A stretch of 64,000 nt of DNA from Tremella fuciformis (lineage: Eukaryota; Basidiomycota; Tremellomycetes; Tremellales; Tremellaceae): positions 2,046,001 through 2,110,000 of the forward strand of contig CP136492.1 in NCBI GenBank assembly GCA_032768795.1. The letters are read 5' to 3'. Of this stretch, positions 13,668 to 28,019 are shown one piece after another. Made by a program: the position numbers and the translations under genes. The notes under the pieces are model-generated. The model was not told the origin of the DNA. It saw only the letters and a program-made list of their open reading frames with translations, and made no database searches. Position 1 is the stretch's first letter, and each line of letters begins with the position of its first letter.

Positions 13668-13949
13668 GAATGTAGAGTGTACTCGAGTACTGCATGCAAT
13701 GACGTTTTGCTCTGACAAGAGCGTGAATCTCGAGGCGGACAGAAGTATCGCGAGCCGGGCATGATACTTCTGTCGCCTTGCGCTGCGGTGCAGACGAAGA
13801 TGATTGTTCGCCAAAGGAGACAGTGCCGAGAAATGCGCCCTCGGGTTGGCGTGCCCGCTCCACACACAGACACACACACAAAAAGAACATGCGTCGATCA
13901 TTGTTGCGGAGGAAGTTCTCATTGCTTCTCACTTCCGCAATCGACCATC

Positions 13950-14816
13950 ATGAGCGAATCCGAGACAAAGACGAAGGAGGAAGAGAAGCGGGAGCCAACG
14001 CTGCATGACAAATACCGAGAAGGCGACATCGACCTCGTCTCGAGCGACAACGTGCTCTTCAAGGTACACAAATATCAATTGATGGCTGCCGGGTACAGTA
14101 CCGTCCTACACCGACATCTCGACGTGCTGAACAGCAGAGCGGGCTTCCGTGATGCTTTGACTTGCCCCATCAATTCGAATGAAGCGAACCAGAAGAGCAA
14201 TGCGATCGAACTCGAACTGGTCGATAAGGATATCGAGACTTCGCGTGTCATAGGGGGATTCTTTGACTTCCTGGAGATCGGCACAATTTCCATGGCGGAT
14301 GTTTCCGCCCTCGGTTTGGTTCGTGACGTCTTACGCTTTGCACGCAAATGGCAGTGTACTGCGGCGGTCCGAATCTTGCTCGACTGCGCGAGACTTTCTC
14401 TTCTGTCCGAACCTGAGTCTGTGGATCCGAGTGTTTATTTTCGCATTGGTGCGGAAGCGGAGGATATAGCGCTTTGTCTGACTGCCATTCGGAATACCGG
14501 GCTCTGGAAATGGACCGGAGAGTCGAAGTTTGTGGGCGGCGATCGAATCAATTGCTCGGTCATGGATCCGACGGTATGGGAAGAGATCGACTTCGAGTGC
14601 AATCCTCGCTACTTTTGGGCGTTGACAGTGGCATCCCACAACGAGCTCGGACCTAGCGCCCAGCATGATCAAGCCCGATGGAAGCGTATCGCCGACAAAT
14701 TCGAGATCGTCGTCAAGTCCAAGAAGAGCGGTATGTGCTCGATCCATGACAGCAGGCGGAAAATGAGGCGCAGGTGTCTGAGCAGAGTTTTGGATCTGCC
14801 TCAAAGCTCGAGTTGA
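13950..14816 (+). CDS. BTB/POZ-like protein, cluster member 1
   Basis: The N-terminal part reads GDIDLVSSDNVLFKVHKYQL, the opening strands of a BTB/POZ fold, a protein-interaction domain often linked to cullin-3 ligases or transcription. The frame is open over 288 codons. A 42-nt GT-AG segment (14093-14134) is a multiple of three and lies at the position where the paralogues have their intron. Removing it gives MAAGRAGFRDALTCP, which matches the paralogues better (274 residues). The C-terminal region has MDPTVW and YFWAL, echoing the DPRTW...Y.WAL.RA block of the other members. No DNA-binding domain is seen. The partner is unknown. Confidence 0.75.
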   Translation: MSESETKTKEEEKREPTLHDKYREGDIDLVSSDNVLFKVHKYQLMAAGYSTVLHRHLDVLNSRAGFRDALTCPINSNEANQKSNAIELELVDKDIETSRVIGGFFDFLEIGTISMADVSALGLVRDVLRFARKWQCTAAVRILLDCARLSLLSEPESVDPSVYFRIGAEAEDIALCLTAIRNTGLWKWTGESKFVGGDRINCSVMDPTVWEEIDFECNPRYFWALTVASHNELGPSAQHDQARWKRIADKFEIVVKSKKSGMCSIHDSRRKMRRRCLSRVLDLPQSSS

Positions 14817-15036
14817 GATCACCGGATATGAACGGAAAGATTGACACATAATGACGCAATGACCATAAGACGACTCGTGAAACCCGCGATGCAATCCATA
14901 TCGCCAATTTGTGAAGGCGGAGGTAGCAATAGGAGGGATCCCGAGGTCGATGGTGGGTGAAATCAGAGCGGCGGGACCGCAGTCACTGGACCGCTGTCCT
15001 TCCATCCTCACTGGTCTCCTGTCTTTCCTGTTGCTT

Positions 15037-15816
15037 TCACGGGACCTGTGCCAGCTCGAGAAAGTCCTCAAAGCGCTTAGCGATCCTGCCCCAGTCCGTG
15101 TCTCTGGCAGACCAATCGAGTCCGAGTGTCGCCCTGTCCAGCGCCCAGCGGTACTCCGCCGAAATATCGCCCAGCTCTCCCAGCTCCCATGTCCGCATGT
15201 CCAGGCTATCCCGGCCAGCCACCTCCTTCTGCAGCACTCTCCACTGCGGCCGCGGCTTGCACGCAGTGTGCTCGTTCGTGATGACGCTCTTGGCCAGCTC
15301 GACATTGTGGTACTTTGACGCCAAGCGCAGGAGGCCCTTGGTAGACTGACATTTGCCCATCAGAACGCTGCGGTGCAGGTCGGCGAGAAAGTGCCGCTGG
15401 ACGGTCGTGCAGCCCCACTTGTCGGTGAAGCCGAGCAGGGCATCGACCTTGGCGAGATCTCTCGTCTCGGGCAGGCTGACGACGAGGCCTCCTGCATAGC
15501 GCACAAAGCGCCGTATGACGTCGGACGACTCGAGCTCCCCGTCGTCAAAGGTGATCTCGGCGGGGACGGCGTCACTTGAGGTGGCCCACGCATCGCGGAG
15601 AACGTCACTGAAGCGTCAGCGTCAGGCTGTTTGATGCGTTGCAAATAGGCCATACCTCGCAGCCCACAGCTTGTACGCCTCGATGTCGAACCGCCCTCCG
15701 TCGCTGGCGACAAGAGTGACCGACATGGTGGCGGACGACATGCGCGCTCTCGGGGCGCTGGCCTCGTCCTCGTCGTCGCTTTCTACAACACGGGCGCGGG
15801 CCCGCTTGCCCAGCAT
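15037..15816 (-). CDS. BTB/POZ-like protein, cluster member 2
   Basis: Exon 1 (15816-15656) and exon 2 (15607-15037) are joined by a 48-nt intron that removes the stop in the unspliced frame. This gives 243 residues. The N-terminus has a basic patch (GKRARARV) and then SVTLVASDGGRFDIEAYKLW, the first BTB strands. The C-terminal half carries GRDSLDMRTWELGEL and YRWALDRATLGLDW, shared with the member at 27237-28019, its closest paralogue. The intron lies at the same site as in the other members. It is convergent with the gene at 13950. Function is unknown beyond a likely protein-interaction role. Confidence 0.8.
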
Positions 15817-15964
15817 CTGAGAGGTTGACCAGAGTTGCGTCCAATAGTCAGAAGACGGTCGCTTTACAACCCATAGTTAGGCGGTGAACAGCGATGAAAG
15901 GGGACATCTCGTGCCTGACGGTCTCGGTTACATGGTCGCGACGCTATAGTATGGCGAGCCGCCT

Positions 15965-16100
15965 GTGCCAAAATTGATTTTGAGCGTCATTTTTTACTTC
16001 TCCATCGACGCTTTCCTTCATATCCATTTTTCTCGCGTCGTATGCATCGTAGAGCCTCCAAACCACCACCAATCGATTCAGCGCATCAAATGACACGTCC
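15965..16100 (+). repeat. Left terminal inverted repeat region
   Basis: Begins GTGCCAAAATT; the block at 16059-16085 matches the right end inverted at 25 of 27 bases, and TAGAGC just before it is also shared. It presumably acts as transposase binding site and as promoter of the integrase gene. Confidence 0.7.
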
Positions 16101-17990
16101 ATGGACCCCTTGATCGCCTCTGGAGGCCATGTAGAACGCTCACGACATGGTGGGTTGAATGATGACGGGGGCCACCGTGTAAATGACGGTCAGAGCACAC
16201 CTACCTTGCTTTCAGCCGCCGACATAGGCAACATCGAGCTCAATGTCGCTCGGTACACCTCTGCAGCCCTCGTATGGGTCAACAGCAGCCCCTCTGACAG
16301 AGATCCGAGGTCTCTGCCGCCCTACATCGCCTCCATCACCCGTCTCATTGTCGACCTTCGGGCTATCGAGATGGCCCTACCCGCTCAGACCTTCGCACCG
16401 CTGCATATACACCTCACTCTGGTTCAGGACATGCTCAAGGCCGCTCAGCGCACCATTGACAGCCTTCTGGGACCCCTGGGATGTCCGCAGAGCAAGTGGC
16501 GGACATGGGGAACCGTCCAAACCGGGGAAATCGGCCGCCCAGCGATAGCTTGTCCTGAAGCAATGTTGAAAGACCTGCACAGGCTCGGGATGAACACCAG
16601 GAGGCAAGCAGAGCATCTACACGTCTCCCGGAGGACGCTGTATAGGTGGAAGAAGGATCTAGGCCTATCTATCGCTGCAGAGAACGAGCTCAGCCCGCTT
16701 CAAGTCCAAGCGGTGAGATCTGCTCTGTTACCTCTGTTACTTCATCTGAGCCCGGTGCAGACCTCATGGGACGCCGGAAAGCTGACTTATAGGAGGTGGA
16801 TCGTTGCTGGAAAGAAGGGGGAGGGATGGAGGGCTACCGCTTGATCCTGGCGGCCTTCAAGAGGAAAGAGATCGCGGCATCACGAGCACAGGTCAGAGAT
16901 GCGATCCGGGCTCTTGACTCTGACGAGGCCCGACGCCGTTTCGCTCAGACAACCACACGCCGCGTGTACGACGTTCCATTTGCCAACAGCCTGTGGCACA
17001 TAGACGGCCATCACAAGCTTATAGACGTCAAGATCGTCATACACGGCGGGATCGACGGCAAGTCCCGAAAAGTCGTCTTTCTCAAGGCTAGCACAAACAA
17101 CCGGGCCGCCACTGTCTTTGAGAGCTTCCAAGAGGCCGTGAGACGCTTTGGGATACCCAGCCGTGTTCGTGGAGACTATGGAAAGGAGAATTTGGACGTT
17201 AAACGGTTCATGGAAGCAAAGCGAGGTAGGTTGCGCACGGGCCGCCCAATTACCCGTCAATGTCGCTGACCCAAATTTAGGTATAGCTCACCATGCATTC
17301 ATCCAAGGGCCATCAACCCGCAACCAGAGGATAGAGCGGTTCTGGCTGGACCTCCAGTGGCGCTGTACATTCCGATACCACATGTTGTTCGACAGCTTCA
17401 AAGAGAGAGGCCTTCTCAGCGTCGACAACCCTTTTGACATTTGGTGTTTACACCTGTGTTACCTCCCGATGCTCAATCTGAGCCTTCAAAACACCATGAT
17501 CGACTGGAATGGGCACAAGATGGATGACCTAGGAGGTCAGAGTCCGGATCTGATGTGGTGGGACAGTGAGCAACTCGCACAAACGATTTATCAGCTGATG
17601 AAAGGTGTGCTGGACGCCGAAGACCGTGGGATCGACATTATTGGAGATCCTGGGATGGCAGGCGGCTCAGAGGTCCAGGAGGGCCTGGGGAACAACCTCC
17701 AACGGCCACTTGGCTTTGCTGAGTACGGGCTAGACGATTACGGGCGGAGAGCAGATGGTCAGATTTCGAGCGACGATCCACTGGTTGAAGTTCAGCCCGT
17801 CCTAGGTCATATTCCGCCGGAAATCGCCTCTTACCTTGAAGACGAAGGCCTGCAGGCTACCCTGCTGTCACGCATAGGCGCCTGGGCTCTGGGGATGGAC
17901 GACTGGGGAGAGCAACGGTATGTGCGCTGTCGGGCAGATCTTGATGAGATCCTGCGATCCCAATTTCCGTCAGTGCTCGGGCTACAATGA
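16101..17990 (+). CDS. DDE integrase/transposase with helix-turn-helix
   Basis: Three exons (16101-16712, 16793-17225, 17281-17990) give 584 residues. About 160 residues in, RRQAEHLHVSRRTLYRWKKD looks like a helix-turn-helix. An integrase core (rve-type, RNase H fold) follows. The likely catalytic residues are D in WHIDGHHKLI, D in VRGDYGKEN (56 residues between them) and E in NQRIERFW (34 further on). HGGIDGKSR and STNNRAATV are typical of the integrase-core proteins scattered in fungi and animals and related to Ginger-type elements; that family placement is from memory. It would cut and join the transposon ends. The frame is intact, so the enzyme may still work. The C-terminal 200 residues are acidic and unrecognised. 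Confidence 0.8.
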
Positions 17991-18068
17991 CTCTTTATGC
18001 ATGAAATTTGCATGGGGTGGTAGAGCAGACCGTGCTGATGCCTCCAGTGCCCATTTCATGCATGCACC

Positions 18069-18073
18069 ACATG
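18069..18073. repeat. Target-site duplication of the Ty3 element (left copy)
   Basis: ACATG directly before the left LTR; the same five bases follow the right LTR at 24397-24401. Confidence 0.9.
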
Positions 18074-18641
18074 TGTCACGCCTGGGCTCCCTTGGGTAGT
18101 GACGAAGGAGGAACGGAGCAAGAATGTTGGGGCGGTAACCCAACAAAGTCGTCACTGGCTCGTCGAGCAAGGACACGGACTAGGAGGTTCAACTCCGACG
18201 AGGTCGAACTTGACCGAATGGGATCGGACTGGGATGAGGGACTGGGACTGGAGGGGAAGTCACTGGGAGATGTGAAACTGATCCATCGCTGGGGCATCTA
18301 CGAGAAAGTTGCGGGTTTATATATACAATAGGCGTTCAGGTGAACGGCACAAGTGTTCGGGTGATCGTTCGGATGAACAGTCAAATACTGCTTCTTCTGG
18401 AAGGCGTTCATGTGACCAAAGGGGGTCGGGTGAACGCTGCTTGCGTTCAGGTGAACGTGGCAGGCATGTCGTCCAAGGCTAGTGTTTGTTCGGGTGAATA
18501 GGATTTGTGTTCAAGTGAACACTTGGGTGAACGGTGATGTCATGGGTAGATGTCCCAAGGATGTGGAGACGGAGCGGAGCGAAGATTACTTGAAGTTGAG
18601 TCGGAGGTCGGAGCAAAGTCGGAGTTTGGTCGTTCATGACA
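18074..18641 (-). repeat. 3' LTR of the Ty3 element
   Basis: 568 bp, matching 23829-24396 except one base (A at 18187 against G at 23942). It holds a run of degenerate GTTCAGGTGAAC dyads at 18334-18532. Confidence 0.95.
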
Positions 18642-18682
18642 GGAGCTCCCCCTCTAAAGGCGAAGTCCTCTGAGCCTGGAGC

Positions 18683-21600
18683 TCAAGTCTTTTGGTGTGC
18701 CGAGTTTGGCGGGAAGTGGTGTCGAGGGTTGCGGAGATGTTGTCGACGGAATGCTTTGTAGGCCGTGGTGTCGAAGATGTTTTCCCATGGTTCCCATGAA
18801 TCGTGGGCATCGGAGTAGTCTTTCCAGTGGACAAGGTAGTCGTAACCATTGTCTTCACTGATGCGAGAGTCAATGATCCGGTCGATTATGTATTCTTCTT
18901 GACCTTGGATCTCGATTTTGGGCGGAGGGTCCTGCTGTTGATGTTGATGTCCTGGTCGGACAGGCTCGAGCAGGTTGACATGGAAGACGGGGTGGATCGG
19001 AAGTGTCGGAGGAAGATCGAGTTTGAATGCAAGTGGCGAAGATGTTGTGCCAATGATAGTGTAGGGACCCAACATGCGTTGGTCCAACTTGAGAGAAGGT
19101 CGGAGCGAAGTGATGTTTCGTCTGTTGAGGAAGACTGAGTCGCCAATTTTGAATGTCGGAGTGGAATCCGAGTTGGTGATGGCTTTGGCTCGCTTGTTGA
19201 AGTGGCGGACATAGCTGGCCTGTGCCTTCTCGAGATTGGAGTGTAGCTCCTTGTGGATTTTCTCGAGTGATTGGAGGTGCGAAGTTGCCGCTGGAACCAA
19301 GGAAGGTGGTGGAGATGCCGGAGAGAGCGGGTGGTAACCGTAATTTGCTTCGAAGGGACTGTGTTGGGTGGCGGAGTGTGTCGAATTGTTATAGGCAAAT
19401 TCGGCAATGTCGAGGATTGTTGACCAATCGTCCTGGTTGTGGTTGCAATAGGTGCGAAGATATGTTTCCAAGACTTGGTTGACTCGTTCGGTCTGGCCGT
19501 CGGATTGCGGGTGGAAGGCGGTCGAGAAGTTTGGTGTGATGCCAAGACCGTTGACAAATGCTCGCCAGAATTGGGAGTTGAAGATCGCTCCTCGGTCGGA
19601 GACAATGTTGGAGGGTATGCCGTGAAGTCGAACAATGTTTTGGCGGAAGAGTGAAGCAAGGTGCGGAGAATCGAATCCTTGTTCTTGATAAGGGACAAAG
19701 TGGGCTTGTTTTGTGAATCGGTCAACGAAGACCATGATTGAGTCGAAGTTATTCGATTTTGGGAGTTTGACAATGGCGTCCCTGGAGATCGACTGCCAAG
19801 GTCGGGTCGGAATTGGAAGTGGCTGGAGTGGTCCATACGGTTTGTGTCGAGGTGTTTTGTTTCGTGCACAGGTATGACAACCGTTGACGTAGGTGTTGAC
19901 AAATGATCGAAGACCAGGGAAGTAGAAGTGTCGGGAAGCGAGGTCATAGGTTTTTGCCTGTCCTAGGTGACCTGCAGTCGGAGCGTTGTGAACTTGATGA
20001 AGAATGTCGAGGCGGAGTTGGTGATTATCGGGAACATAGACTAGATTGGCGAAGTGGATAACTCCGTTGTCGATGGAGTATGACGGAAGTTCGGTCGCAA
20101 TTGAAGTTGGCGGAGTAAGATGGGGATTTCCCAGATAGGGTCGGATTTGGCGGAGATGAGGGTCGACAAGTTGAAGTTGGCGGATGCGATCGATGATGGT
20201 CGAAGTGATTGTTGAAGATTCTGAAGTTTGACGTTTGCGGTTGGTGGCTCCAATGACAAGTTGACCTGGTTTCAGGAGAGTGTGTGGCGGTGCTTCAGCA
20301 GCTCTACTCCCCCCCTGAAGGTCTTGACGTCTCGTCAAGGCATCGGGCTTGCCCATTTTGGTGCCAGGCCGGTAGTGAATCTTGAAGTCGAAGTTGGCGA
20401 GAAGTTCTGCCCACCGTGCTTGTCGGCGATTAAGCACTCGAGAGGTGGTGAAGTATTCGAGATTTTTGTGATCGGTGAAAACCGTGATTTCGCTTGATCC
20501 TTCGAGGTAGGATCGCCAATGTTTGAACGCTTCGACGATTGCAAGCATTTCTTTGTCGTATATTTCGTAGTTGAGTTTGGCTGGTTGGAGTTTCCTGGAG
20601 TAGAAGGCAATCGGATGAAGGTTGTTGGAATTGTTGGCAGCTGGATGGGATAGGACACCCGCTATGGCGTAGTCGGAGGCGTCGGTTTCAAGAATGAGAG
20701 ATTTGCCGGGCTTGAAGTGTTGTAGGATTGGTGCCGAAGTGAAGGCGGACTTGAGTGATTCAAAAGCTTCGGTTTCCTTCTCTCCCCATTCAAACTTCAC
20801 TTCCTTTCGGAGGAGTCGGGTGAGCGGAGCGGTGACCTTTGAATATGACTTGATGAATCGCCGGTAGAAGTTGGCAAAGCCGAGGAAAACTTGAATGTCG
20901 TGGACCGAAGTTGGTTTTGGCCAAGAAGTGACTGCTTCGACTTTGCTTGGGTCCATCCTGATTCCCTTGTCCGAGACAAGATAACCAAGGAAGTCCACTT
21001 CATGTCGGAAGAAGGTGCACTTCTCTGCCTTCGCCCAGAGTTGATGTTGTCGGAGGCGATCCAGGACTTGTTGGACGTGTCGAACATGATCTTCGCGGGT
21101 TTTGCTGAAGATCAAAATGTCGTCCAGATAGACAATGACGAAGATATCGAGGAAGTCGCGAAGAGTGTCGTTAATGAGATTTTGGAACGATGCCGGGGCA
21201 TTTGTTAGGCCGAAGGGCATGACCAAGTATTCGAAGAGGCCGTAGCGTGTGCGGAAAGCGGTTTTCCACTCATCGCCAGGTTTGATCCGGATGAGGTTGT
21301 AGGCGGCTCGAAGATCGATTTTGGTGAACCAGGATGCGCCAGAGAGGCGGTCGAGTGACTCTTGAATGAGCGGGAGTGGGTATCGATTCTTTCGAGTGAT
21401 TGAGTTGAGGGAGCGGTAGTCGACACAGAGTCGGAGGCTGCCGTCGGATTTCTTGACAAAGAGGATCGGAGAGCCAGCTGGGCTGGTGCTGGGTCGGATA
21501 AATCCTTTCTTGAGGTTCTCCTTGAGGTATTCGTCCAGAGCTCGGAGCTCGACTGCAGACAAGGAGTAGATCGGTCCGAACTTTGGTTGGGCGTCCCCTT

Positions 21601-22771
21601 CCAAAGGGATTGCGTGATCGTATGGTCCATGGTCTGGGAGCTTGTCGGAGTTGGATTTGTTGAAGACGTCAAAGTAGGAGTGAAACTCGGTTGGGATCTG
21701 GGTTCGGAGTGAAGCAAGGTCGGGAATGGTATTGTCGTCATCGTCGCCTGTCGATGGGGTTGGATCGATGAGACCTGAGACTTGATTGGCAGATGTAATG
21801 CCGAAGATGCTAGCGGTTTTGATCGCTTGGCGGAAGGCTTTCCCGCTGATTAGGGATACCTGAATCGGTCGACTCGATGATTGATCGTAGTGCCGAGTGA
21901 CTGGATGGGGCGGACTTGAAGCGGAGTTGCTTGGCAAGTTGCGGACTGGAGTTGTCGAACATGTCGGAGATGTCGAAGATGTGTTTTGCGTACCCGAAGT
22001 GTCGATACTTGGCGGGTTGCGGACTCGGAGAGGCGATGTTGCCTGTGACTGGAATGGCGTATCTGCAGCTTTGCTGGACAGATTACCGGAACTAGGACTG
22101 GAATCTCGACCCTCAGGCTTGCCTTGCCTGATGCACTGTGCCAGACAGTACTGGGAGGAGAAGACGATGGTCTGGCGGGACCAATCGACGACTGGATTGT
22201 GCTGGGATAGCCATGGAAGGCCAAGGATGACTGGATAATCGCCAAGTGAAGTGATGTCGAAGGAAATCACTTCGGAGTGATCAAGAATGGCGAGTCGGAC
22301 TGGAGTTGTGTGATGGGTGATGGCGCCGGATTTGATCGGTCGACCATCGATAACTTCGATTGGAACGGCTTGTTCCTTTTGGACTTGTTGAATGTTTGTG
22401 GCGGAGAGGAACGACTTGTTGATGAAGCTGCCGGTAGCTCCAGAGTCGATCATAGCATAGGTGTCGAAGGAGGTGTTGTTGATCGAGAGTGTGATCGGAA
22501 CACACAGGTGCGGGATAGAGTGGTTGGAGGTAGTGGACAGAAGCGTTGTAGCCGATATTTGATGACCAGATTGGATTGAACCGGAGGTATGGTGCCCACG
22601 TGTGAGCCCCAGAGGTGGGGGCACATCTAGGCCTGGGGCTTGGTGTTTTTTGCCGGTTCGGAGGTGGATCGTGCGTTGATCGCACTGACTTGAGTAGATC
22701 GATTGTTGCCTCGGTTTGGTCGGATTGGACATTGGCCTGCGCTGTGACCAGGTTTGCCACAGTAGAGGCAA
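18683..22771 (-). CDS. Ty3/Gypsy Pol polyprotein (protease, RT, RNase H, integrase, chromodomain)
   Basis: An open frame of 1,362 codons. In order it shows an aspartic protease (MIDSGATGSF), reverse transcriptase (catalytic VYLDDILIFSK), RNase H (LETDASDYAIAGVLSH), an integrase zinc-binding region (AGHLGQAKTYDLA...CHTCARNK) and a catalytic core (SDRGAIFNSQFW, FHPQSDGQTERVN). A C-terminal chromodomain-like segment (YIIDRIIDSR, YLVHWKDYSDAHDSWEPW) follows, which in chromoviruses steers integration to marked chromatin. The frame is -1 relative to Gag and overlaps it by 145 bp. Its first codon in the overlap is not ATG, so it is probably made as a Gag-Pol fusion by -1 frameshifting. No inactivating change is seen. 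Confidence 0.95.
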   Translation of the reverse strand: MPLLWQTWSQRRPMSNPTKPRQQSIYSSQCDQRTIHLRTGKKHQAPGLDVPPPLGLTRGHHTSGSIQSGHQISATTLLSTTSNHSIPHLCVPITLSINNTSFDTYAMIDSGATGSFINKSFLSATNIQQVQKEQAVPIEVIDGRPIKSGAITHHTTPVRLAILDHSEVISFDITSLGDYPVILGLPWLSQHNPVVDWSRQTIVFSSQYCLAQCIRQGKPEGRDSSPSSGNLSSKAADTPFQSQATSPLRVRNPPSIDTSGTQNTSSTSPTCSTTPVRNLPSNSASSPPHPVTRHYDQSSSRPIQVSLISGKAFRQAIKTASIFGITSANQVSGLIDPTPSTGDDDDNTIPDLASLRTQIPTEFHSYFDVFNKSNSDKLPDHGPYDHAIPLEGDAQPKFGPIYSLSAVELRALDEYLKENLKKGFIRPSTSPAGSPILFVKKSDGSLRLCVDYRSLNSITRKNRYPLPLIQESLDRLSGASWFTKIDLRAAYNLIRIKPGDEWKTAFRTRYGLFEYLVMPFGLTNAPASFQNLINDTLRDFLDIFVIVYLDDILIFSKTREDHVRHVQQVLDRLRQHQLWAKAEKCTFFRHEVDFLGYLVSDKGIRMDPSKVEAVTSWPKPTSVHDIQVFLGFANFYRRFIKSYSKVTAPLTRLLRKEVKFEWGEKETEAFESLKSAFTSAPILQHFKPGKSLILETDASDYAIAGVLSHPAANNSNNLHPIAFYSRKLQPAKLNYEIYDKEMLAIVEAFKHWRSYLEGSSEITVFTDHKNLEYFTTSRVLNRRQARWAELLANFDFKIHYRPGTKMGKPDALTRRQDLQGGSRAAEAPPHTLLKPGQLVIGATNRKRQTSESSTITSTIIDRIRQLQLVDPHLRQIRPYLGNPHLTPPTSIATELPSYSIDNGVIHFANLVYVPDNHQLRLDILHQVHNAPTAGHLGQAKTYDLASRHFYFPGLRSFVNTYVNGCHTCARNKTPRHKPYGPLQPLPIPTRPWQSISRDAIVKLPKSNNFDSIMVFVDRFTKQAHFVPYQEQGFDSPHLASLFRQNIVRLHGIPSNIVSDRGAIFNSQFWRAFVNGLGITPNFSTAFHPQSDGQTERVNQVLETYLRTYCNHNQDDWSTILDIAEFAYNNSTHSATQHSPFEANYGYHPLSPASPPPSLVPAATSHLQSLEKIHKELHSNLEKAQASYVRHFNKRAKAITNSDSTPTFKIGDSVFLNRRNITSLRPSLKLDQRMLGPYTIIGTTSSPLAFKLDLPPTLPIHPVFHVNLLEPVRPGHQHQQQDPPPKIEIQGQEEYIIDRIIDSRISEDNGYDYLVHWKDYSDAHDSWEPWENIFDTTAYKAFRRQHLRNPRHHFPPNSAHQKT

Positions 22772-23652
22772 TGATTGTTCTTGAATCGATGTTCCCTTTC
22801 CTGAGGAGTGAGGGGCGTGAATCGTGGTCGAACAGCATTGATTTCCATTGGAGTTGGAGTGAAGGTCAATGTGTTTTGGGTCGAAGATGTTGGAGTGCGG
22901 ACGAAGTTGTTGGTCCGTGGCGTTGGATTGGTGTTGGTGATCCGTGCGTGCGTGGTTCGGATGGCGGAGTTGGTGAATCCTCTTCTTCGCTGGAACAGGA
23001 GATCATCCCATTTGATGGCACTGTCGATCAAGTCGGTGATGGTGTCGAAGCCATTGGGAGTAAGGAGTTTGTCCTTGACATCCTCCTTGAGTCCATCGAA
23101 GAAGGAGTGTCGCATTGCTTCGTCACCCCAGTGGAGGTGAGCAGCATGGCGCTGGAACTCGGTCGCGTAGTGAGTCGCTGAACCGGTTTGTCGAAGGACC
23201 TTGAGTTTTTGGCGAGAGGTTTCGATGATGTTTGAGTCGCCAAAGATTTTCTTGAATTCGACCTTGAAGTTGTCCCATTGTTGGACCCACATAGGTTGTT
23301 CGCTCTCTGCAAGGAGCAGATGCGGCATGACCCACTGATAGGCCTGGTCCTTCAATAGGTTCGTGACAAATGCAAGCTTCGCTTTGTCGGTCGAGTAGGT
23401 TCGGGGTTGAACAGAGAATACCATGTCACACTTCAGGATGAACTCCGCTGCCTCATCCTTGCGGCCAGTGAAGGCGGTTGGATGTGAGACTTTGGGCTCC
23501 TTGCTGAAGGCAACAGGTTGAGGAGTGGGGGTGGCCATGACCTGGGCTTGGGTGTTGGTCAAGGCTTGCTCGAGTTGAACGATCCGGGCTTGCATAGCCT
23601 CAAGGACGTCGTTGTAGTCTTGAGTGTTGGTGGGAAGTTCGAGGTCGGACAT
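22627..23652 (-). CDS. Ty3/Gypsy Gag
   Basis: A 341-residue frame from the ATG at 23652. The middle has the capsid-like retrotransposon Gag region (AEFILKCDMVFSVQPR, WVQQWDNFKVEFKKIFGD). Near the end is one CCHC zinc knuckle (CLYCGKPGHSAGQC) for RNA binding. It would form the particle that packages the element RNA. It lies directly upstream of Pol, with a 145-bp overlap. Confidence 0.93.
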   Translation of the reverse strand: MSDLELPTNTQDYNDVLEAMQARIVQLEQALTNTQAQVMATPTPQPVAFSKEPKVSHPTAFTGRKDEAAEFILKCDMVFSVQPRTYSTDKAKLAFVTNLLKDQAYQWVMPHLLLAESEQPMWVQQWDNFKVEFKKIFGDSNIIETSRQKLKVLRQTGSATHYATEFQRHAAHLHWGDEAMRHSFFDGLKEDVKDKLLTPNGFDTITDLIDSAIKWDDLLFQRRRGFTNSAIRTTHARITNTNPTPRTNNFVRTPTSSTQNTLTFTPTPMEINAVRPRFTPLTPQEREHRFKNNHCLYCGKPGHSAGQCPIRPNRGNNRSTQVSAINARSTSEPAKNTKPQA

Positions 23653-23828
23653 GGTGAAGGTGGTCGGATTGTCCTAGAGTATGATCGAAGATGGCGAAGT
23701 TTGTCGAAGTGTCCTTGTATATTATCGAAGAGGGTGAAGGTATGTCGGATTGTCGAAATAAAGAGTGTGGTCAAATCTATGTAAAGAGTGAAGAAACCGA
23801 GCGAGGACGAAGGGGTAGCGATGGATAC

Positions 23829-24396
23829 TGTCACGCCTGGGCTCCCTTGGGTAGTGACGAAGGAGGAACGGAGCAAGAATGTTGGGGCGGTAACCCAACA
23901 AAGTCGTCACTGGCTCGTCGAGCAAGGACACGGACTAGGAGGTTCGACTCCGACGAGGTCGAACTTGACCGAATGGGATCGGACTGGGATGAGGGACTGG
24001 GACTGGAGGGGAAGTCACTGGGAGATGTGAAACTGATCCATCGCTGGGGCATCTACGAGAAAGTTGCGGGTTTATATATACAATAGGCGTTCAGGTGAAC
24101 GGCACAAGTGTTCGGGTGATCGTTCGGATGAACAGTCAAATACTGCTTCTTCTGGAAGGCGTTCATGTGACCAAAGGGGGTCGGGTGAACGCTGCTTGCG
24201 TTCAGGTGAACGTGGCAGGCATGTCGTCCAAGGCTAGTGTTTGTTCGGGTGAATAGGATTTGTGTTCAAGTGAACACTTGGGTGAACGGTGATGTCATGG
24301 GTAGATGTCCCAAGGATGTGGAGACGGAGCGGAGCGAAGATTACTTGAAGTTGAGTCGGAGGTCGGAGCAAAGTCGGAGTTTGGTCGTTCATGACA
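23829..24396 (-). repeat. 5' LTR of the Ty3 element
   Basis: 568 bp. On the minus strand it contains TATATATAAA at about 24072-24082, the likely promoter of the element. The dyad array lies at 24089-24287, upstream of that TATA on the transcribed strand. Confidence 0.95.
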
Positions 24397-24608
24397 ACAT
24401 GATCCTGTTGAAGGATCAGAGAATTTGAGATACCTCGGCCTCATCAACACCTCCCCGAGCAGCCTTTCCTTCCTACCCGTCCGCCCATCGTCCTTTGGCT
24501 ATGTCGAGCAGCCGAGAAAGGTGATATCTGCTTTTCAGCTCCAATTTCCGCAATTCTGCATCGATCTTGATGATCCAGTGACTGGGATGTACAGCAGGCT
24601 CACCGGGA

Positions 24609-26232
24609 TCAGGCCACCACACCGGCGGCGTTATCGACAACACCGGCGCGGGCGGAATTCCTGGTGGGCCGCGGCATCGATTCTTCATGCGTCGAAAACA
24701 GCGGTGAGAGCTCGATCCTTGCTCTCTTGGTCCTAGGGGTGCGCCTGCGGCCTGTGCTTGCTGTGAGGACGGTGATAGGCGTGCCCAGACCCCCCAGCGG
24801 GGTCCCAGAGCGTCCACGGCGGGCTGGGCCGGTGATTTCCAGAGGAATCGACGATCCTGCGTTGTCCGTCTCTATCGAGGTGTCGGACAGCGTCATGGGC
24901 TGTCCTACATTGGCCCCTTCGGCCCAGGAGACTGCTGCCACAGCCTCCTTGGCCAACGGGGCCAGCGTAGCCTTGCCCCGCATTGAAGTCCGAAGCCCGA
25001 CCCGCCCACCAACTCGTCTCTGTAGGGCAGCCTGGGCGTTAGCTGGAGAGGCTGCCACCTCTGCAGTCCCGCCCAGGACAGCCTGCAGGCCGTCATTGGA
25101 TGTATCGTCCGCATCACTGTCGGCTGAACCGTCTAGTTCGTGCAGTGCCGTCTTCCAGGCCTTCAGGAACTTCCTGTGTTCGGTGTCGCCCGTGAAGACA
25201 GGGATGATAGGAGTAATGATCATTGAGCCACCATCCTCAAAGAAACGATCTAGATTGCGACCGGCAATGACTTTAGATCGTGGGCCTTTATACAGGTCTG
25301 CTCCGTCTTCAGACGATAGGATCCAGCGGCTAGGTCAGCCAACCGTCTCTCGGCGTCCCAAGAGACACGCACGCATATTCAGTGATGTCCAGAGTGTCTA
25401 CCTCAGGCAGGGATCGCACCACTTCGGCTTGGACGTCCTCTACCGTCATGCCGTAGGAGAATGACGGATAGCCCACAAACTCTCGCTTGCGGCACAGCTT
25501 GCGAAGGGCCTCGAGCTTCTCCTCGGTCCAGGGGGCAGATTCCTCGAAGATCTGACAAGCAGGAACATAGAGAAGCTGAAGCAATGTCAGCTCTCGGCCT
25601 ATCACTCTGTAGCGCAGACCCACACCTCCCGAAGGCTGATTCTTGAGCGGTAGGTCATGATCCTTGGCCAGACGAGTCAGGATAAGCTTCTCTGCAGTCT
25701 GGGGAGCATCCAGAGGCCTAGGGACGAGTGACGGGGCTGTAAGCGTTGCTCCACGGCTGACATTGGACTTCCTGCGGCCACGGGCGGCCGCCCAACCGGC
25801 TCGAATGTTACCTGCGGACTGTATGTCGAACCGAGGCAGCCCTTCGGCCCGGACTTGGTTGGGAGGTTGCAGGAGCGTCCCCTCTGTATAGAACAGGTCG
25901 TTTCCAGCCGCTGGGGACGATGTAGCCCGACTTATGTCGCCCGGAGTGGCGACAACAGTTGTCGATGGGACCAAAGGGGTAGGTCCCGTAGACGCAGATG
26001 TCGCCTGTGAGGGCCCGGTCGACCCCATGGCGCTCAAGAGAGCAGGTAAGGCTCCTGGGTTGCTCTGGGCAAGGTGCGCGACGACTCTGACTAGCTGAAT
26101 GTCCATTGGGGACTGTCTATGAGTGACTGCAAGTCCCGCTACCTCATAGAAAATCACGCAACCCACCATGTCGGAGCTACCTTCCGCCGAAGACGTCCCA
26201 GAGGCCGTATGCATGGAATTGACGCGTTGCAT
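24609..26232 (-). CDS. Transposon-borne protein of unknown function
   Basis: Exon 1 (26232-25373) and exon 2 (25329-24609) join over a 43-nt intron into 526 residues; the join reads EYARWILSSEDGADLYKG. The first part is Ser/Pro/Thr-rich and low in complexity. The middle (PLKNQPSGGVGLRYRVIGRE, LRKLCRKREFVGYPSFSYGM) is well structured and has no motif I recognise. The tail is basic and probably disordered (RRTPRTKRARIE). It has no integrase, helicase or zinc-finger signature. Its 5' end is part of the right terminal repeat, which ties it to the transposon and suggests a role in mobility, targeting or regulation; that is inference. Confidence 0.7.
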
Positions 26233-26366
26233 TACGTGTAATCAAGTGCGCTGAGTCGATTGGTCGTGGTTTGAGAGCTCTATCGTCAAAACTGACAGAG
26301 ATACAGCGAGTCTGCGATATGCAGAGGTGGAAGGTGAATTTAAAAATGGTAGCGGAATTTTGGCAC
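26233..26366 (-). repeat. Right terminal inverted repeat region
   Basis: Inverse counterpart of 15965-16100: GTGCCAAAATT at 26366-26356 and the 27-bp block at 26273-26247, read on the minus strand. Confidence 0.7.
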
Positions 26367-26422
26367 TCGTGGCCCGTCGTCATACGACGCGACTGCTTTC
26401 TTCTACTCGCTCTCATCACAAC

Positions 26423-27236: not shown

Positions 27237-28019
27237 TCACTTCTTAGCTATTTGGAGGAATGTTTGGAATCGATTCGCCACCTTCACCCAATCGGTATCC
27301 TTCGCCTTCCAGTTGATGTCCAGGGTAGCCCGCTCAAGGGCCCATCTGTACCGCAGCGGAATCTTGGCCAAATCTTCTATTTCCCATGTCCTGAGATCCA
27401 AGGCATCGCGGCCTGTCACCTCTTTCTGCAGCTCGGACCAACTGGGTTGCTCGCCAATCGTCTGATGAGACCGACTGATGAGGGTCTTGGCCAATCGGGC
27501 GTGGTCGTAGATTGCGGCGATCTCGAAGAGCGACTTTGTGTCGTGGTCCCGCTTCGAAAGAACTCTGCAAGACAAATCGGAGAGGACATGCCTCTGGACC
27601 GCCAGACAGCCCCATTTGTCGGTGAATCGGAGCAGCCCCTGGAATAGAGGCAGCTTGCTTCGGGTAGGCAGGGCGACCGGCCTCCCTTCTATGTAGGCCA
27701 CGAAGAGATCCAGAATCAGTGAGGTCTCGATCTCAGTGTCATCGAAGACAATCTGCGTCGGTGTGGGATGTGTGAAAGCCCATGCGTCTCGTAGAATATT
27801 GCTGAGAACCATCAGACGTGCAGCATGTGTGAATCGTTGGGCCCACCTTGCGCCCCAGAGATGGCATGCCTCGACCTCCAATGTCCCTCCATCACTCGCG
27901 ACAAGCGTAATGGTCGTGCCTCTCTTGGGCGCCTTGCGCAGGGGTTGGGCGCCGCATTCATCACTGTCGCCTTCGTCGAGCTCCCCTTCGGTACTTGGGT
28001 GTTGTCGCTTGGCGCTCAT
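27237..28019 (-). CDS. BTB/POZ-like protein, cluster member 4
   Basis: Exon 1 (28019-27847) and exon 2 (27801-27237) give 245 residues; the 45-nt intron could be read through without a stop. After an acidic, basic-patched N-terminus, TTITLVASDGGTLEVEACHL begins the BTB fold. SNILRDAW follows the intron, then the shared C-terminal block GRDALDLRTWEIEDL and YRWALERATLDINW. The closest paralogue is at 15037-15816 across the transposon. It is convergent with 26423-27123 and divergent from 28239-29061. Confidence 0.8.
   Translation of the reverse strand: MSAKRQHPSTEGELDEGDSDECGAQPLRKAPKRGTTITLVASDGGTLEVEACHLWGARWAQRFTHAARLMVLSNILRDAWAFTHPTPTQIVFDDTEIETSLILDLFVAYIEGRPVALPTRSKLPLFQGLLRFTDKWGCLAVQRHVLSDLSCRVLSKRDHDTKSLFEIAAIYDHARLAKTLISRSHQTIGEQPSWSELQKEVTGRDALDLRTWEIEDLAKIPLRYRWALERATLDINWKAKDTDWVKVANRFQTFLQIAKK

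What the first reader, a model, noticed from the sequence alone, without database searches (positions are those of the whole stretch)
15965..26366. Two-gene DNA transposon with an integrase and a convergent companion gene
Unrelated genes at both ends begin 134-136 bp inside matching inverted repeats: GTGCCAAAATT at each end, and a 27-bp block with 25 identities at 94 and 93 bp from the ends. The left gene is an integrase with DDE residues in place and the right gene is unrecognised. This layout (integrase and companion, convergent, about 4.1 kb once the nested element is removed) does not match a fungal transposon family I can name. Known parts: the DDE integrase fold and TIR structure. Inference: both genes move together.
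Basis: partly seen in the sequence, partly recalled or inferred. Interest (0 to 1): 0.85.

Follow-up and report, generated by a model that had tools for sequence, protein, structure and literature searches.

The report
Two-gene fungal IS3EU-type DNA transposon
This stretch is a real jumping DNA element of a fungus, belonging by its ends and its cutting enzyme to a known group (IS3EU), and every copy with both ends carries the same second gene, a fast-changing protein with almost no relatives that I could find.

Summary
The finding is real. Of 17 loci examined (window included), 11 have both ends, TATG...CATA, each with a 6-bp duplication; the other six lack at least one recognisable end. Three uninterrupted copies are about 4.1 kb. 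Eight longer ones (9-32 kb, window copy included) carry nested retrotransposon-like insertions.

The left gene is an integrase-type transposase (Pfam rva_4). The right, convergent gene encodes about 500 aa and occurs at 13 loci, all of which also have the integrase. Both genes show purifying selection, strongest on the integrase core. An intron-free companion protein in a public collection suggests transcription.

Termini, duplication size and transposase fit the IS3EU/GingerRoot superfamily, already known in fungi; a tree with reference elements was not possible. TET-bearing fungal IS3EU elements also pair the transposase with an oppositely oriented gene, an alpha-kinase. This companion matched no Pfam family or solved structure, so I file it as a new variant of a known kind. 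Its role in transposition is inferred.

The parts
15945..26384 (.). Whole transposon copy (IS3EU type), with a nested LTR retrotransposon; about 4.1 kb without it by subtraction
   Evidence: Termini shared with 10 other two-ended copies, each with an exact 6-bp duplication
15939..15944 (.). Left target-site duplication CGACGC
   Evidence: Equals 26385-26390 when the five bases TATAG (15945-15949) are counted as element; no match directly at TATGG
26385..26390 (.). Right target-site duplication CGACGC
   Evidence: Equals 15939-15944
15945..16098 (+). Left end: imperfect inverted repeat of about 150 bp, TATAGTATGGCGAGCC...; the first five bases are extra in this copy
   Evidence: Alignment of both ends of five copies, against shuffles
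26234..26384 (-). Right end: imperfect inverted repeat, read inwards TATGACGACGGGCC...
16059..16085 (+).
   Evidence: Read; genome pattern search
26247..26273 (-). Subterminal 27-bp block, right, 25 of 27 identical to the left one
   Evidence: Read; genome pattern search
16101..17990 (+). Integrase-type transposase gene with introns; HTH domain, then rva_4 core with D at 17003, D at 17174 and E at 17334; exact start codon uncertain
   Evidence: Pfam HTH_23 4e-6, rva_4 1e-36 and 7e-19; frames in other copies; dN/dS 0.05-0.12 in the first core exon, 0.13-0.48 in the other two stretches
24609..26232 (-). Companion gene, 492 aa; exons 26232-26167, 26112-25624, 25575-25373, 25329-24609
   Evidence: Gene model; splice pattern agrees with the intron-free protein P0122
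18074..24396 (-). Nested LTR retrotransposon, Ty3/gypsy-type by eye; LTRs 18074-18641 and 23829-24396 (1 mismatch in 568), duplication ACATG

Best explanation
A cut-and-paste DNA transposon of the IS3EU/GingerRoot kind with two convergent genes. The integrase binds the ends through its HTH domain, with the TATGRCGRGC terminus and the subterminal block as likely sites. It cuts the element out and joins it to target DNA at positions staggered by 6 bp, which leaves the 6-bp duplication. The companion is a transposon-owned accessory protein. My best guess is a nuclear protein that helps assemble the transposase on the ends or counters silencing of the element. Shown: ends, duplications, copies, both genes together, selection. 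Likely: a spliced companion transcript. Inferred: the cut-and-paste steps, what binds the ends, and the companion's role.
For: Eleven of 11 two-ended copies have a 6-bp duplication at TATG..CATA (in the window copy after five extra bases). Integrase rva_4 domain. All 13 loci with the companion also have the integrase. Between subfamilies dN/dS is 0.05-0.12 in the first integrase core exon, 0.13-0.48 in the rest of the integrase, and 0.2-0.5 in 26 of 30 companion comparisons (range 0.10-0.66, chosen representatives only). Copies 98-100% alike at distinct sites suggest recent movement. Left and right ends share subfamily-specific variants in the five copies aligned. An intron-free companion protein is in a public collection. 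IS3EU is described with TA..TA termini and usually 6-bp duplications (PMC10045372, section 3.3 read).
Against: No IS3EU reference sequence was available, so the placement in that superfamily is untested by phylogeny. The right terminus (TATGA) departs from the TAYGG..CCRTA reported for rust families. The companion has no recognisable domain, its AlphaFold model is poor (mean pLDDT 36.8), and nothing shows directly that it acts in transposition. Eight integrase loci lack the companion. Synonymous sites are near saturation, so dN/dS values are rough.
Confidence: 0.85

Rival explanations
1. The companion is a passenger or anti-host factor that is not needed for the cutting and joining, as suggested for TET/JBP genes of other fungal transposons. 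It would ease expression or survival of the element.
For: Fungal IS3EU elements carry other extra genes, TET/JBP and alpha-kinase (PMC12730594). The companion (36-66% identity between subfamilies over its three exons tested) evolves much faster than the integrase core (82-92%), though only a little faster than the integrase N-terminal part (52-68%).
Against: It is present at all 11 two-ended copies, which points to a standing role. No enzyme domain is found.
Confidence: 0.4
2. The companion is a highly diverged version of the second gene of other fungal IS3EU elements (alpha-kinase) that lost its recognisable motifs.
For: Both are second genes in the orientation opposite to the transposase (PMC12730594).
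Against: No Pfam match up to E = 10 in any of 5 subfamily members and none in the PDB. The genome search for PF02816 found nothing, but its controls did not ring either, so it is uninformative.
Confidence: 0.1
3. Two unrelated genes lie by chance between inverted repeats, or two elements are nested.
For: The window alone could not exclude it.
Against: The same two genes and ends recur at ten other sites, each with its own 6-bp duplication.
Confidence: 0.01
4. The element belongs to another integrase-like group: Ginger1, Ginger2 or IS481EU.
For: All use related DDE integrases.
Against: Ginger1 has an HHCC zinc domain before the core (PMC10045372); here the N-terminal part is an HTH and no zinc domain was listed. 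IS481EU has TG..CA termini and duplications around 4, 15 or 25 bp; here they are TA..TA and 6 bp. Ginger2 was not tested apart.
Confidence: 0.04

Closest known systems
IS3EU/GingerRoot superfamily (Repbase; PMC10045372)
   Same: TA..TA termini, 6-bp duplications, integrase-type DDE transposase without HHCC domain
   Different: No reference sequences were at hand for a tree; I found no described counterpart of the companion gene, but Repbase could not be searched
TET+ IS3EU elements of rust fungi and Tuber (PMC12730594)
   Same: 6-bp duplications, TATGG-type left terminus, second gene in the orientation opposite to the transposase
   Different: Their second gene is an alpha-kinase, with a TET/JBP gene between; here it is a protein of about 500 aa without known domain and no third gene was seen. 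Right terminus TATGA, not TAYGG as in the rust families
Styx of Zymoseptoria (PMC10853768, passages)
   Same: Fungal IS3EU-like transposase, 6-bp duplications, an ancestor proposed to encode two proteins
   Different: Styx has four genes and a 36-bp inverted repeat; the passages I saw do not say what its second protein is

Membership tests
IS3EU | 6-bp target-site duplication | tested here: met
   11 of 11 two-ended copies; in ten, of the lengths 3-11 only 6 fits; the eleventh, the window copy, fits only after counting five extra terminal bases as element
IS3EU | TA..TA termini | tested here: met
   TATG...CATA in 11 of 11; in the window copy the left end is TATAGTATGG
IS3EU | Integrase-type DDE transposase without HHCC zinc domain | tested here: met
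   rva_4 core and HTH_23, no zinc domain listed up to E = 1; 56 residues between the two D, 34 between D and E (counted by eye on the spliced frames)
IS3EU | Falls in the IS3EU/GingerRoot clade | not testable with these tools
   Repbase sequences are not held. A tree of 105 rva_4-type proteins without labelled IS3EU members groups it with the only named fungal protein (Tulasnella), apart from fish, cnidarian and sea cucumber ones
TET+ IS3EU of fungi | Alpha-kinase gene opposite to the transposase | tested here: not met
   Companion matches no Pfam family up to E = 10
TET+ IS3EU of rusts | Termini TAYGG..CCRTA and inverted repeats over 30 bp | tested here: inconclusive
   Left TATGG met, right TATGA not; the inverted repeat is about 150 bp but imperfect
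Ginger1 | HHCC domain upstream of the core | tested here: not met
IS481EU | TG..CA termini and duplications of about 4, 15 or 25 bp | tested here: not met

The most novel reading that the evidence does not exclude
This is a distinct two-component branch of IS3EU in which a fast-evolving orphan protein is an obligate partner of the transposase, for example binding the subterminal block present at both ends, a division of labour like that of other two-protein eukaryotic transposons (recalled, for example Harbinger).
Probability: 0.35. Interest if true: 0.6.

Novelty: new variant of a known kind. Interest (0 to 1): 0.42.

Why it matters
Fungal IS3EU elements seem to pair the transposase with a second gene of changing identity: an alpha-kinase in the TET-bearing families (PMC12730594), this orphan here. 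A compact 4.1-kb element with clear ends and a companion that is probably transcribed makes the question of why these elements need a second protein testable.

Tried and rejected
Companion as a ubiquitin-like domain: suggested to me by eye, but a profile comparison with ubiquitin gave a probability of 0.1%, so I dropped it. Companion structure: an AlphaFold job on P0122 with two window frames gave mean pLDDT 36.8, so I ran no fold search. Companion relatives: a full-length search found one protein, P0122 (only the 7995 candidates sharing most words were scored). A search with the conserved middle returned none, and since it missed even P0122 it is weak evidence of absence. Integrase against solved structures: no match. 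Cargo in the long copies: not supported; all eight long copies contain long direct repeats that bound an insertion, TG..CA LTRs in seven and repeats of about 320 bp in the eighth (C4a); I did not account for every inserted base. A second integrase family of the same genome (L051, L052) was examined: left end TATGGTACGCC, no right end with a 6-bp duplication in the 5 kb held, one further frame on the same strand without Pfam match. Target preference: the 6-bp duplications start with C or G in 11 of 11 and end with C in 10 of 11; suggestive, few sites. A putative transposon of Agaricus (PMC10051438, passages) proved unrelated: 9-bp duplication, no integrase mentioned.

Full report
What was checked. 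A search of that genome with 501 bases of the left end gave 20 matches, and with 701 bases of the right end 16 (such counts are lower bounds). I fetched the 16 loci besides the window that hold them. In ten of them both ends could be located; in six (C9a, C4c, C10a, C1b, C10b, C10c) at least one end was missing or unrecognisable. Counts on ends use the ten plus the window, 11 of 17.

Ends and duplications. All 11 two-ended copies have TATGGCGRGC at the left and end in CATA. Ten have an exact 6-bp direct repeat at that point, the only fitting length between 3 and 11. The window copy has no match directly at TATGG, but CGACGC on both sides once five further bases, TATAG, are counted as part of the element. 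This is a fit after the fact; C4c, the nearest one-ended relative, has TACAG there. The eleven hexamers are all different. They begin with C or G in 11 of 11 and end with C in 10 of 11, which looks like a target preference, but with eleven sites I only note it.

Inverted ends. The two ends form one imperfect inverted repeat of about 150 bp with two conserved parts, the first 30 bp and a block near 105-150. Local alignment scores between left and right are 31-52 in the five copies tested, against a maximum of 20 in 200 shuffles each. A pattern from it hits the genome 17 times, 16 times at ends of this family by coordinates; the seventeenth (C8:297692) was not examined, and the reversed control gave none. 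Inside the terminal part each of the five subfamilies aligned has its own variant (GTGCCAAAATT, GCGCC, CCGCCAAAAGT, GCCTCA with differing flanks), and the two ends of a copy share it. This fits recognition of both ends by one protein. That is inference.

Size and nested elements. Three two-ended copies are uninterrupted: 4070, 4107 and 4098 bp. The other eight are 9-32 kb. All eight contain long direct repeats bounding an insertion: TG..CA LTRs with nearly identical copies in seven, repeats of about 320 bp only in the eighth (C4a). I did not account for every inserted base. The window copy contains one LTR element, 18074-24396, with 1 mismatch in 568 bp of LTR and the duplication ACATG.

Left gene. 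Pfam finds rva_4 (integrase core) over two exons, E = 1e-36 and 7e-19, and HTH_23 before it; no zinc-binding domain was listed. There are 56 residues between the two D and, counted by eye with the intron removed, 34 between D and E. The start codon is uncertain because the first exon is not conserved in frame among copies. Between chosen representatives of the subfamilies (four to six copies per stretch) the first core exon is 82-92% identical with dN/dS 0.05-0.12; the N-terminal part has 52-68% and 0.19-0.48, the last part 58-74% and 0.13-0.22. A tree of 105 proteins (100 of the 120 listed relatives, chosen by length, plus five from this genome) puts the family on a long branch with the only named fungal relative (Tulasnella) and a second family of this genome, apart from fish, cnidarian and sea cucumber proteins. 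It contains no labelled IS3EU element. The proteins came from a list of 120 out of 398 hits.

Right gene. The model has four exons and 492 aa. The sole database relative found, P0122 (502 aa), is an intron-free version of another copy type: exons 2-4 match copy C3b at 98.8-100%. Since the genomic copies seem to have introns there, P0122 most likely comes from spliced RNA; I have not seen the record's sample type. Five subfamilies share conserved stretches (QSASNIRAGWAA, an NQP motif, a middle part of about 120 aa, and a basic C-terminus ending TRNSARAG). No Pfam family and no solved structure matched up to E = 10, and the structure prediction was poor. dN/dS lies between 0.10 and 0.66 over 30 comparisons, 0.2-0.5 in 26 of them. 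This is purifying selection, much weaker than on the integrase core and a little weaker than on its N-terminal part. Many synonymous distances exceed 1.

Do the genes belong together? A genome search with P0122 (E up to 0.1) gives 43 matching pieces at 13 loci, all of which also have integrase matches; 11 are the two-ended copies and two are decayed copies on C10. The reverse is not true. Eight integrase loci lack the companion: C10a (similarity stops inside the integrase), three members of a second family at 53% identity (two of them read in part, L051 and L052), and four further pieces on C10 that I could not fetch. So within this family the pair moves as a unit.

Comparison with what is known. 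IS3EU elements are described with TA..TA termini and usually 6-bp duplications, without HHCC domain (PMC10045372: first part read, passages, section 3.3). TET-bearing IS3EU elements of rust fungi have 6-bp duplications and TAYGG..CCRTA termini, and all TET-bearing IS3EU families have transposase and alpha-kinase genes in opposite orientations (PMC12730594: passages, abstract, section 4.2). Styx of Zymoseptoria is IS3EU-like, with an ancestor proposed to encode two proteins (PMC10853768, passages). IS3EU is listed among repeats of Ganoderma and Phlebopus (PMC8955403 and PMC12411881, one passage each). I found no description of this companion in seven paper searches, but Repbase itself was not searchable and may hold it.

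Verdict. A real two-gene DNA transposon, by its features an IS3EU element and by the likeness of its copies recently mobile, with a companion protein that I could not relate to anything known. The element kind is known; the companion is the open part.

Noticed in passing
window 18074-24396: Young LTR retrotransposon, Ty3/gypsy-type by eye (1 LTR mismatch in 568), with a 1362-aa pol-like frame ending in a chromodomain-like stretch and a separate gag-like frame, nested in the transposon.
   Followed up: partly
L026, left ends at 984 and 3187: One copy has two left ends 2203 bp apart with the same flanking 40 bases and about 500 bp of element; it looks like a tandem duplication.
   Followed up: no
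L051, L052: A second rva_4 integrase family in the same genome, left end TATGGTACGCC; two copies 99.9% identical over 1490 bp with different flanks, one of them interrupted after that.
   Followed up: partly
G000 C10 around 327000-333000, 441000-450000, 540000-562000: Contig C10 holds several decayed integrase copies; some may be further subfamilies.
   Followed up: partly
window 13761-15500 and 27237-28019: Related-looking short protein genes (BTB/POZ-like by eye) on both sides of the transposon, possibly a local gene family.
   Followed up: no
11 insertion sites: The duplicated hexamers start with C or G (11 of 11) and end with C (10 of 11) in the element's orientation, which would mean an orientation-dependent target choice.
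   Followed up: partly
G000 C8:297692-297713: The one hit of the subterminal pattern (3 mismatches) that is not at a known copy; a solo end or chance.
   Followed up: no
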